Shown in pieces: positions 22,101 through 24,609 of a stretch of 64,000 nucleotides of DNA. The notes under the pieces are model-generated. The model searched no databases and was not told the DNA's origin. It saw only the letters and a program-made list of their open reading frames with translations. The translations under genes and the position numbers were made by a program. This stretch comes from Streptococcus sanguinis SK1 = NCTC 7863 (GTDB lineage: Bacteria; Bacillota; Bacilli; Lactobacillales; Streptococcaceae). How positions within the stretch are numbered: the first letter of the stretch is position 1; each line of letters opens with the position of its first letter. The DNA lies in the NCBI RefSeq assembly GCF_000194945.1, contig NZ_GL878507.1, forward strand, positions 945,963-1,009,962, given 5' to 3'.

Positions 22101-24609
22101 CTGACGCACTCGTGGAAGCAGACGTGCTTGCACTTACTGATGCACTTGTTGACGCGGACGTGCTGGCTGAAACTGATGTGCTCGTGGAAGCTGACGTACT
22201 TGCACTTACCGATGCACTCGTTGAAGCAGACGTACTTGCTGATACGGATGCACTCGTTGAGGCTGAGGTACTTGCACTCACAGATGCACTGGTAGACGCT
22301 GACGTACTTGCGGATACTGAGGCACTGGTGGATGCAGATGTACTTGCGCTTGTAGACGCGCTAGTCGATGCTGACGTACTTGCGCTCACTGACGCACTCG
22401 TTGAAGCCGATGTGCTGGCACTTACGGACGCACTCGTCGATGCTGACGTGCTTGCGGAAACTGACGCACTAGTGGAAGCCGACGTACTTGCACTCACCGA
22501 TGCACTCGTTGAGGCGGACGTACTTGCTGATACAGATTTCTGTGCTGAAGTTGATGCACTAATGGAAGCCGATTTACTAGCCGCCGTAGATTGGCTCGCA
22601 GACGTAGAAGCGCTTACTGACGCACTCGCTGATAAACTAGGACGTAAATCTTGAACAGTCCTATCAGCTGTTATTGTATCTCTTGAACGGCTAGCAGGAG
22701 TATCATCTGGATAAATAACCGTCACAGAACCATCATTGTTAACAACATATTGGACATTGTTAGGCAGATTCCCTGTATTAGCCGCCCTAACTTTTTCTTC
22801 AATAGCTGTTTTTTCACTTGTTGATAGTTGCTGGGGATTCAGAACCCCAGTTAAACTTCCAGGATTGTTTGGTGTATATTTATCTGTCTGGTTAGCAAAA
22901 ACAATTCTGAAAATTTTTGCTTCACTAGTTAAACCACTAGCATCTGTCGCTCTAACCTTGAAAGTGTATTTACCACCAGGTCCTGCTGGTAGACTTTTCG
23001 GTATCGTCCCTCTAATAGTTGTCACAAGAGGATTTTGTTCCGTAGCATTATTAGGATTGTTTATATTCGGTGTATTAAATGTAAAACCTAAGCCTAGCAA
23101 AGTGTTATAAGTGCTACTAGCAGCAAGATCTCCTGCAAAATTTACATTGGTAATCTTACCACTATTATCATAAAAGTGGAGTTCAGCAGTACCTTCTTCT
23201 CCACGATAGAAGATATAGTCTCTACCCTCATCAACAAAGACTGGGGCTACCCTATCTGTATCAACTGTCTGTGCAGCAGCAATAGTGTCTGTTGAACCAT
23301 CCGGATAGGTAATTGTTACGGTACCATTTTCTGAAACCGAGTAAGTTGAGGTGGCAGGAAGATTTGGATTAGCACTTTTGACTGCAGCAATGACAGCATC
23401 TTTGTCTGTTTGGGTCAGACTATTCGCATTCTGAACATAGGTTAAAGTTGGAACTTGAGGAGTATATTTTTCTGTCTGAGGTCTTATAACTAATACAAAA
23501 CGCTCACTTTGTTTGTCTACTAATGCAGTGATATTCCCTGCAGCATCTTCTGCTCGGACATATTTAGTATAGCGATCCCCAGGTCCAACACCATGATTAA
23601 TTGGCACAATACCGTAGACACGAGTCCTTAGAGGATTAGCAGGCGTTGCATTACCTGGAACACTCAAGTTATCAGTAGAATATCTTATCCAATTTGGATC
23701 TAAGTAAGTAGAGTTATCTGCTCCTTCAATATTTCGAACAATGACTCGATTAACTCGACCACTATCATCAGTTGTTTCGACAAAAAACTCAAACTCTTCT
23801 CCTCGATAGGCTATTACCTCTTGAGGGAGAGTGATTGTAGGAGGGGTTGTATCTGTAGCCCGACGCGTTCTTCTACGCCCAGTCTGACTAGAGGATTCTG
23901 TAGACTGCTGGCTGCTTGTAGAGTTGCCGGTTTCTGATGCAGACGATGCAGAGGTCTGACTGGCAGAAACTGATTGAGAAGAACTGGTTGGCTGACTAGT
24001 ACTAGCACTCACTGAAGCCGATGCACTTGAAGACACCGAAAGAGACTCAGATACACTTAAGGAATCTGAGACTGACTGAGATGTGCTGGCACTGATAGAG
24101 GCAGAGCTAAACTGTGACATTGACTCTGAAGCTGAGATGCTGGCTGAGATAGATGCACTGACAGAAGCACTGGCACTGGCTGAAGATGTATCTGATACAG
24201 ACTCTGACTCAGTATGTGAGCTTGCCGTTGCGGTTGCTGCTTCAGCAGCACTGCTTTCTTCTCCTAAAACTGTTTCACCACGTGTCGCTAAAACGTCTGT
24301 CGTATCAATGACCTTTTCCAGAGCCTGACCTTCTTCTGCATGGACAGTTGTGCTTGTCACAACAGCTCCGCCCAGCACGGCTCCCGTGGCGACAATGCCC
24401 CTCAAAAAGTCTATGCCGCTCTTCTTATCGGTAACTTGTTCTTCCGTTACCTTGAGCTCGATTGATGAAAGGCCTCCCCCCTTCATTGATCTAAAAAGGC
24501 CGAACTGTGATGTCGCAGCACGCAGCCAATGCTTACCCGATTTAATCAGCTTAAAACGAGTCACACGCTCTACTTCGTGGTACTTACCTTTTTGACGTTT
24601 AAAAAACAT
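16186..24609 (-). CDS. srpA: Giant serine-rich repeat adhesin (SrpA/GspB/Hsa type)
   Basis: This 2807-residue LPxTG surface adhesin has a 91-residue SRR signal peptide (KSGKHW motif at 23-28, predicted cut after VHA). It is followed by a short serine-rich region (about 110-250) and a binding region (about 253-655) made of two Siglec-like plus Unique modules. The first module has the sialoglycan-binding motif YTKY at 347-350. The second has YTFK at 548-551. Residues about 655-2770 are degenerate 12-residue repeats of S-A-S-x. The anchor is LPQTG at 2772-2776, then a hydrophobic segment and RRKKK. Such proteins bind sialylated platelet GPIb and salivary mucin. GGGAG precedes the ATG. Export and glycosylation depend on the adjacent operon. 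Confidence 0.95.
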   Translation of the reverse strand: MFFKRQKGKYHEVERVTRFKLIKSGKHWLRAATSQFGLFRSMKGGGLSSIELKVTEEQVTDKKSGIDFLRGIVATGAVLGGAVVTSTTVHAEEGQALEKVIDTTDVLATRGETVLGEESSAAEAATATASSHTESESVSDTSSASASASVSASISASISASESMSQFSSASISASTSQSVSDSLSVSESLSVSSSASASVSASTSQPTSSSQSVSASQTSASSASETGNSTSSQQSTESSSQTGRRRTRRATDTTPPTITLPQEVIAYRGEEFEFFVETTDDSGRVNRVIVRNIEGADNSTYLDPNWIRYSTDNLSVPGNATPANPLRTRVYGIVPINHGVGPGDRYTKYVRAEDAAGNITALVDKQSERFVLVIRPQTEKYTPQVPTLTYVQNANSLTQTDKDAVIAAVKSANPNLPATSTYSVSENGTVTITYPDGSTDTIAAAQTVDTDRVAPVFVDEGRDYIFYRGEEGTAELHFYDNSGKITNVNFAGDLAASSTYNTLLGLGFTFNTPNINNPNNATEQNPLVTTIRGTIPKSLPAGPGGKYTFKVRATDASGLTSEAKIFRIVFANQTDKYTPNNPGSLTGVLNPQQLSTSEKTAIEEKVRAANTGNLPNNVQYVVNNDGSVTVIYPDDTPASRSRDTITADRTVQDLRPSLSASASVSASTSASQSTAASKSASISASTSAQKSVSASTSASTSASVSASTSASTSASVSASTSASTSASVSASTSASTSASVSASTSASTSASTSASTSASTSASVSASTSASTSASVSASTSASTSASVSASTSASTSASVSASTSASTSTSVSASTSASTSASVSASTSASTSASVSASTSASTSASVSASTSASTSASVSASTSASTSASVSASTSASTSASVSASTSASTSASMSASTSASTSASVSASTSASTSASVSASTSASTSASVSASTSASTSASVSASTSASTSASVSASTSASTSASVSASTSASTSASVSASTSASTSASVSASTSASTSASVSASTSASTSASVSASTSASTSASVSASTSASTSASVSASTSASTSASVSASTSASTSASVSASTSASTSASVSASTSASTSASVSASTSASTSASVSASTSASTSASVSASTSASTSASVSASTSASTSASVSASTSASTSASVSASTSASTSASVSASTSASTSASVSASTSASTSASVSASTSASTSASVSASTSASTSASVSASTSASTSASVSASTSASTSASVSASTSASTSASVSASTSASTSASVSASTSASTSASVSASTSASTSASVSASTSASTSASVSASTSASTSASVSASTSASTSASVSASTSASTSASVSASTSASTSASVSASTSASTSASVSASTSASTSASVSASTSASTSASVSASTSASTSASVSASTSASTSASVSASTSASTSASVSASTSASTSASVSASTSASTSASVSASASASTSASVSASTSASVSASTSASTSASVSASTSASTSASVSASTSASTSASVSASTSASTSASVSASTSASTSASVSASTSASTSASVSASTSASTSASVSASTSASTSASVSASTSASTSASVSASTSASTSASVSASTSASTSASVSASTSASTSASVSTSASASTSASVSASTSASTSASVSASTSASVSASTSASTSASVSASTSASTSASVSASTSASTSASVSASTSASTSASVSASTSASTSASVSASTSASTSASVSASTSASMSASVSASTSASTSASVSASTSASTSASVSASTSASTSASVSASTSASTSASVSASTSASTSASVSASTSASTSASVSASTSASTSASVSASTSASTSASVSASTSASTSASVSASTSASTSASVSASASASTSASVSASTSASVSASTSASTSASVSASTSASTSASVSASTSASTSASVSASTSASTSASVSASTSASTSASVSASTSASTSASVSASTSASTSASVSASTSASTSASVSASTSASTSASVSASTSASTSASVSASTSASTSASVSASTSASTSASVSASTSASTSASVSASTSASTSASVSASTSASTSASVSASTSASTSASVSASTSASTSASVSASMSASTSASVSASTSASTSASVSASTSASTSASVSASTSASTSASVSASTSASTSASVSASTSASTSASVSASTSASMSASVSASTSASTSASVSASTSASTSASVSASMSASTSASVSASMSASTSASVSASTSASTSASVSASTSASTSASVSASTSASTSASVSASTSASTSASVSASTSASTSASVSASTSASMSASVSASTSASTSASVSASTSASTSASVSASTSASTSASVSASTSASMSASVSASTSASTSVSVSASTSASTSASVSASESASTSSSAKASESASTSASVSASTSASTSASVSASTSASTSASVSASTSASTSASVSASTSASTSASVSASTSASTSASVSASTSASTSASVSASTSASTSASVSASTSASTSASVSASMSASTSASVSASESASTSSSAKASESASTSASVSASTSASTSASVSASTSASTSAFVSASTSASTSASVSASTSASTSASVSASTSASTSVSVSASTSASTSASVSASESASTSSSAKASESASTSASVSASTSASTSASVSASESASTSSSAKASESASTSASVSASESASTSSSVSASESASVSASALALASISASVSASESASTSASLSGSESASISDSQSICESTSVSTSTSVLHSQLDLVHEKEFYSLSLSTSESLSAAVSLSELARVSQSVSESLSTSLSASQSTSESLSASARQSELDLISRGRLPQTGETESKASILALGLGALGLAFKRRKKKSDSEE
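16590..22640 (-). repeat. Serine-rich repeat region SRR2, 36-bp unit
   Basis: Roughly 6 kb of tandem 36-bp units encode SASTSASTSASV with scattered substitutions (T to E, M, A or V) and occasional shortened units. The distal part alternates with blocks containing ESASTSSSAKASE. Synonymous third positions vary widely, so DNA repeats are less perfect than the protein. Copy number is likely to differ between strains, and short-read assembly of this stretch would be unreliable. Confidence 0.95.

What the first reader, a model, noticed from the sequence alone, without database searches (positions are those of the whole stretch)
22640..23860. Two tandem Siglec-Unique modules in the adhesin, one with a non-canonical binding motif
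The binding region (about residues 253-655) consists of two copies of a Siglec-like plus Unique unit. Copy one has YTKY at 347-350, a conservative form of the φTRX sialoglycan motif (Lys for Arg). Copy two has YTFK at 548-551, with Phe at the basic position. One module may carry ordinary sialoglycan binding while the other has lost it, binds a different glycan or only positions the first.
Basis: partly seen in the sequence, partly recalled or inferred. Interest (0 to 1): 0.62.

Follow-up and report, generated by a model that had tools for sequence, protein, structure and literature searches.

The report
Published tandem sialic-acid-binding streptococcal adhesin
This is the surface adhesin of Streptococcus sanguinis strain SK1 (or a strain with the same binding tip), whose two sugar-binding modules with unusual motifs already have published crystal structures showing that both bind sialylated sugars, so the finding is real but known.

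Summary
ORF 16186-24609 (-), 2807 aa, is a serine-rich repeat adhesin with two Siglec+Unique modules, YTKY at 347-350 and YTFK at 548-551. It is not new: residues 253-657 equal the crystallised S. sanguinis SK1 binding region (6VS7, 6VT2, 6VU6) in 405 of 405 positions. Stubbs et al. 2020 (PMC7586212, read in sections) treat exactly these two non-canonical motifs, with the same numbering. They show a trisaccharide at each motif, different selectivity of the modules, and avidity from linkage. Small additions here: the modules are 38.6% identical and have different nearest solved relatives (Hsa-type and SrpA). In 12 S. sanguinis-group genomes, 10 of 10 single-module adhesins keep the motif Arg and 0 of 4 modules of the two tandem adhesins do, but those two are almost one sequence. 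The binding region behaves as an allelic block with a sharp upstream edge in 2 of 5 compared genomes.

The parts
16186..24609 (-). serine-rich repeat adhesin gene, 2807 aa
   Evidence: ORF list; signal and N-terminal families TIGR04224, TIGR03715, PF19258
23479..23856 (-). Siglec1, residues 252-377 (limits as published)
   Evidence: PF20164 at 253-367; limits from PMC7586212; coordinates
23560..23571 (-). YTKY motif, residues 347-350
23251..23478 (-). Unique1, residues 378-453
   Evidence: PF18938 at 383-450; limits
22891..23250 (-). Siglec2, residues 454-573
   Evidence: second PF20164 stretch (also G000:C1:968850-969182); limits
22957..22968 (-). YTFK motif, residues 548-551
   Evidence: aligned with FTRT of SrpA
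22630..22890 (-). Unique2, residues 574-660
   Evidence: second PF18938 stretch; limits
16297..22629 (-). second serine-rich repeat region, residues 661-2771, 1037 Ser of 2111 residues
   Evidence: composition
16282..16296 (-). LPQTG cell-wall anchor motif, residues 2772-2776
1514..15848 (-). accessory Sec and glycosylation genes: GtfB, GtfA, SecA2, Asp3, Asp2, Asp1, SecY2, a sugar transferase and an SP_1767-family glycosyltransferase
   Evidence: NCBIfam equivalogs over cut-off for 8 of these 9 ORFs; the ninth, SP_1767 family, is a hypothetical equivalog over cut-off

Best explanation
This is the serine-rich repeat adhesin of Streptococcus sanguinis SK1 (= NCTC 7863), or of a strain with the same binding region. 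Two Siglec-like+Unique modules at its tip each bind alpha2-3-sialylated glycans at an F-strand motif (shown in print). Module 1 uses YTKY much as canonical YTRY, one hydrogen bond short, and prefers sialyl-T antigen (shown in print). Module 2 holds sialic acid through the Tyr backbone, the Thr side chain and an EF-loop carbonyl; Phe550 and Lys551 make no hydrogen bond, and a helical CD loop adds contacts; it is broad on small glycans and accounts for binding to fixed platelets (shown in print). Each module alone binds sTa about 100-fold more weakly than the linked pair (shown in print). The neighbouring accessory Sec system glycosylates and exports the protein (established for the family; only gene content was tested here).
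For: 405 of 405 residues (253-657) equal the chain of 6VS7, 6VT2 and 6VU6. The paper on these entries describes YTKY and YTFK, the ligand complexes, isolated-module binding and avidity; 12 of 12 named residues checked agree. Domain families. Accessory Sec genes alongside. tRNA-Ser just upstream, as PMC5462765 reports for all its S. sanguinis strains (passages). SK1 = NCTC 7863 in the taxonomy.
Against: Residue 658 differs from the chain's position 407 (S against R), near the end of the construct, and the last two chain positions are unaligned; a cloning end or a small strain difference would both explain this. PMC5462765 classes the binding region of all but one of its S. sanguinis strains, NCTC 7863 among them, as SrpA-type and the passages seen do not mention a tandem; in my search module 1 is nearest to Hsa-type chains and only then SrpA. 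No structure coordinates were read here, only the paper's account.
Confidence: 0.96

Rival explanations
1. Module 2 has lost sialoglycan binding and only spaces or orients module 1 (one of the first reader's options).
For: The Arg of the motif is replaced by Phe, and the F strand reads like that of an ordinary Ig-type domain (weak Y_Y_Y and DUF4625 hits at 544-564 and 534-565, both below cut-off). The isolated module binds purified trisaccharides poorly.
Against: Ligand density at YTFK in both co-crystal structures, binding of the isolated module to some glycans, to MUC7 modestly and to fixed platelets strongly.
Confidence: 0.02
2. The natural ligand of module 2 is larger than a trisaccharide, such as a disialylated core 2 glycan or a patch of clustered glycans, as proposed for SrpA. 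This refines the best explanation and does not exclude it.
For: Open site, FG loop almost absent, distal Arg553, poor trisaccharide but strong platelet binding; proposed by the authors. Apart from itself, the nearest solved relative of module 2 is SrpA (98 bits, against 87 for module 1 and 84 for the best Hsa-type chain).
Against: A proposal only; I saw no complex or affinity of module 2 with a larger ligand in the sections and passages read.
Confidence: 0.5
3. The two modules are a recent duplication, and the motif differences are drift in a redundant copy.
For: They stand head to tail with the same domain order.
Against: Only 38.6% identity, different nearest solved relatives, and separate places in a 34-row tree, although its deep forks are weak, 9/85. 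Assays give each module a distinct profile.
Confidence: 0.04

Closest known systems
S. sanguinis SK1 adhesin binding region SK1BR (SLBR-SK1a and SK1b), PDB 6VS7, 6VT2, 6VU6
   Same: 405 of 405 residues, same motifs, same numbering
   Different: One mismatch at residue 658 near the construct's end; the rest of the gene was not compared
SrpA of S. sanguinis SK36 (PDB 5EQ2 and others)
   Same: Siglec+Unique module; nearest solved relative of module 2 apart from SK1 itself (98 bits)
   Different: One module; motif FTRT keeps the Arg
Hsa-type binding regions of S. gordonii (PDB 6EFC, 9Q5E, 9Q5F)
   Same: Siglec+Unique module; nearest solved relatives of module 1 (222-226 bits)
   Different: One module in the solved chains; motif YTRY
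FapC and AsaA (S. oralis), as described in PMC7846122 (passages)
   Same: Two Siglec+Unique modules with the Arg missing from the second
   Different: In both the first module keeps an Arg; AsaA has DUF1542 repeats instead of serine-rich repeats. Not compared by sequence here

Membership tests
Serine-rich repeat glycoprotein adhesins exported by accessory Sec | Long atypical signal peptide (KxYKxGKxW type, ser_adhes_Nterm) | tested here: met
   TIGR04224 64.7 bits (cut-off 25), TIGR03715 29.1 (18), PF19258 36.4 (23.6)
Serine-rich repeat glycoprotein adhesins exported by accessory Sec | Long serine-rich repeat and LPXTG anchor | tested here: met
   1037 Ser of 2111 residues in 661-2771; LPQTG follows
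Serine-rich repeat glycoprotein adhesins exported by accessory Sec | Neighbouring accessory Sec and glycosylation genes | tested here: met
   GtfA, GtfB, SecA2, SecY2, Asp1-3 over cut-off
Siglec-like binding regions (SLBR) | Siglec-like domain followed by a Unique domain | tested here: met
   Two stretches each of PF20164 and PF18938 over cut-off
Siglec-like binding regions (SLBR) | V-set Ig fold | not testable with these tools
   Reported from the crystal structure of this sequence. My own single-sequence prediction of module 2 was too poor to use, mean pLDDT 55
Siglec-like binding regions (SLBR) | Binds sialoglycans | not testable with these tools
   Shown in print for both modules
Canonical phi-T-R-X motif within SLBRs (usual, not defining: the literature keeps SK1 in the family) | Arg at the third motif position | tested here: not met
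   Lys349 in module 1, Phe550 in module 2

The most novel reading that the evidence does not exclude
Tandem linkage releases the binding motif from its Arg: avidity between two weaker sites replaces the affinity of one canonical site, and the whole tandem tip then spreads between S. sanguinis lineages as an exchangeable block between the two serine-rich regions. In the sample 10 of 10 single-module adhesins keep the Arg and 0 of 4 tandem modules do, and the tandem block is more alike between two genomes than the sequence around it. Against it: the two tandem regions are nearly one sequence, and in other streptococci tandem arrays vary (Arg in 7 of 7 WNRY-type copies of G233, G267 and G240 and 2 of 2 in G109, 1 of 2 in G102, 0 of 5 in G096, 0 of 3 in G103).
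Probability: 0.2. Interest if true: 0.35.

Novelty: already known. Interest (0 to 1): 0.08.

Why it matters
Read from its motif alone, module 2 would be called inactive, yet the published structure shows it holding sialic acid without the Arg. The case warns against calling glycan binding, or its loss, from the phi-T-R-X motif. Beyond that, the window holds a known, well-studied adhesin of an oral streptococcus that can cause endocarditis.

Tried and rejected
A single-sequence structure prediction of module 2 gave mean pLDDT 55.2. No fold search was run on it, because matches of such a model would mean little. It shows a short helix at module residues 46-53 (residues 499-506), near the CD helix described in print, but I give this no weight.

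The genome-contig scan with module 2 found no relative; its note says that genomes very near the window's may be left out. The genus-wide search did find relatives (86 of 284 genomes), many of them weak and some covering the Unique part alone.

Recent duplication of the two modules was rejected. Rows dropped on the way: 6 of 50 domain hits before the motif count, because they did not span the Siglec part; 8 of 44 modules as too short and 2 as duplicates before the 34-row tree. The tool warned of long branches meeting in that tree, so the order of events is not settled.

The plus-strand ORF 16610-22654 (2014 aa) and the shorter ORFs opposite the repeat were set aside as by-products of the repeated serine-rich codons (inference).

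Paper searches: one search found no paper; some searches gave listings. PMC6611644 was opened for SK1, but its SK1 hits shown are strain SK12.

Full report
Observation. The minus-strand ORF 16186-24609 encodes 2807 residues. Pfam finds two stretches each of the GspA/SrpA SigLec-like domain and of the atypical Rib (Unique) domain, and the two modules align at 38.6% identity over 202 columns.

Identity. Residues 253-657 equal the chain of 6VS7, 6VT2 and 6VU6 in 405 of 405 positions. The next residue, 658, differs from the chain, near the end of the crystallised construct. These entries are the S. sanguinis SK1 binding region of Stubbs et al. 2020, PMC7586212; I read its outline, part 1 of 2 of the abstract and introduction, the whole Results and Discussion, and part 1 of 2 of the Experimental procedures. 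The paper is about the same two non-canonical motifs, and 12 of 12 residues that it names and that I checked agree with the window. The taxonomy lists SK1 = NCTC 7863. A tRNA-Ser gene lies just upstream of the adhesin (24817-24907), as PMC5462765 reports for all its S. sanguinis strains (passages).

Mechanism, from the paper. The four domains fold independently. In crystals soaked with sTa or 3'sLn, one trisaccharide sits at each motif, in both modules at once. In module 1 Lys for Arg costs one side-chain hydrogen bond; the module prefers sTa and binds a 460-kDa plasma protein. In module 2 Phe550 and Lys551 make no hydrogen bond; Tyr backbone, Thr side chain, the carbonyl of Gly545 and side chains of a helical CD loop do. 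Module 2 is broad on small glycans and accounts for binding to fixed platelets, where linkage adds nothing. Each module alone binds sTa about 100-fold more weakly than the pair, binds MUC7 modestly, and neither alone binds GPIb-alpha appreciably. The authors propose a larger ligand for module 2. So the option of lost binding is refuted, and the option of different targets is partly right.

Other literature. PMC7846122 (passages) already notes that FapC and SK1, like AsaA, have tandem Siglec+Unique modules and that the Arg is missing from the second module of FapC and AsaA and from both of SK1. PMC12446635 (passages) names the modules SLBR-SK1a and SK1b. PMC9117288 (passages) and PMC12821333 (passages) cite the 2020 paper.

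Placement of the motifs. phmmer aligns YTFK with FTRT of SrpA, without a gap in the motif, so Phe550 stands at the Arg position. Apart from SK1 itself, the nearest solved relatives are Hsa-type chains for module 1 (222-226 bits, SrpA 198) and SrpA for module 2 (98 bits, Hsa-type 82-84). In a 34-row tree the two modules fall apart, each with its G190 counterpart (98/98 and 100/100), but the deep forks are weak.

Survey. The SigLec-like family occurs in 86 of 284 Streptococcus genomes at E up to 0.001, over the cut-off in 81 of 284, and in 0 of 14 control genomes. I examined 29 of the loci returned for the best matches plus the window's own protein, a selection that favours strong matches and leaves out 56 of the 86 genomes. 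After dropping 6 of 50 domain hits, 30 of 44 modules have Arg at the third motif position and 14 do not. Eleven genomes (G185-G195) match the window's DNA at 45926-49102 with 95-96% identity and with G000 form an S. sanguinis group. Of these 12, ten have one module, all with Arg, and two (G000 and G190) have the tandem, with YTKY and YTFK in both. The two tandem regions are 99.3% identical in DNA (dS 0.014; Siglec2+Unique2 differ by one base of 621), against dS 0.117 in the first 90 codons (few changes in each) and 95% identity in the 3.2-kb comparison stretch. They are in effect one case. Arrays in other genomes do not follow one rule: Arg in 7 of 7 copies (G233, G267, G240), 2 of 2 (G109), 1 of 2 (G102), 0 of 5 (G096), 0 of 3 (G103); most of those were not shown to be serine-rich repeat adhesins.

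Allelic block. I compared 5 of the 11 group genomes with the window along 22500-26725. Up to about 270 bases before the binding region, 200-base steps are 88-100% identical. In G191 and G194 the match ends at 23861, about codon 250, two codons before the binding region, and identity is 34-53% in the steps within it. In G195 and G192 the fall begins earlier and is more gradual. G190 stays at 97-100% to the end of the binding region. The region behaves as an exchangeable block, which fits the known diversity of these regions.

Surroundings. ORFs at 1514-15848 are GtfB, GtfA, SecA2, Asp3, Asp2, Asp1, SecY2, a sugar transferase and a glycosyltransferase, the usual accessory Sec set. Smaller ORFs at 229-942 were not scanned.

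Verdict. Interest is low.

Noticed in passing
window 23861, upstream edge of the binding region (loci L045, L047; also L044, L046, L048): Identity to sister S. sanguinis-group genomes drops abruptly about two codons before the binding region in 2 of 5 compared (G191, G194), more gradually in 2 (G195, G192) and not in G190: the binding region looks like an allelic block exchanged inside one locus.
   Followed up: partly
L006 (G190): A second genome of the S. sanguinis group carries the same tandem binding region, 99.3% identical in DNA, with both non-canonical motifs, although its first 90 codons of the gene and a distant stretch are more diverged.
   Followed up: partly
L016 (G096), L024 (G239), L015 (G102): Other Siglec-like modules have a basic residue one place late or no Arg in the motif: YTIK, YTSR, YTKR, HTAK. 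Whether they bind sialoglycans is not known from anything seen here.
   Followed up: no
L009, L010, L011 (G233, G267, G240): Arrays of two or three near-alike Siglec-like modules with WNRY, i.e. Asn in place of the motif Thr.
   Followed up: no
window 24817-24907 and 25960-26305, minus strand: tRNA-Ser (gga) and a tmRNA gene upstream of the adhesin; the tRNA-Ser is the neighbour reported for S. sanguinis (passages of PMC5462765).
   Followed up: yes
window 16610-22654, plus strand: A 2014-aa open frame on the opposite strand of the serine-rich repeat, probably a by-product of repeated codons.
   Followed up: no
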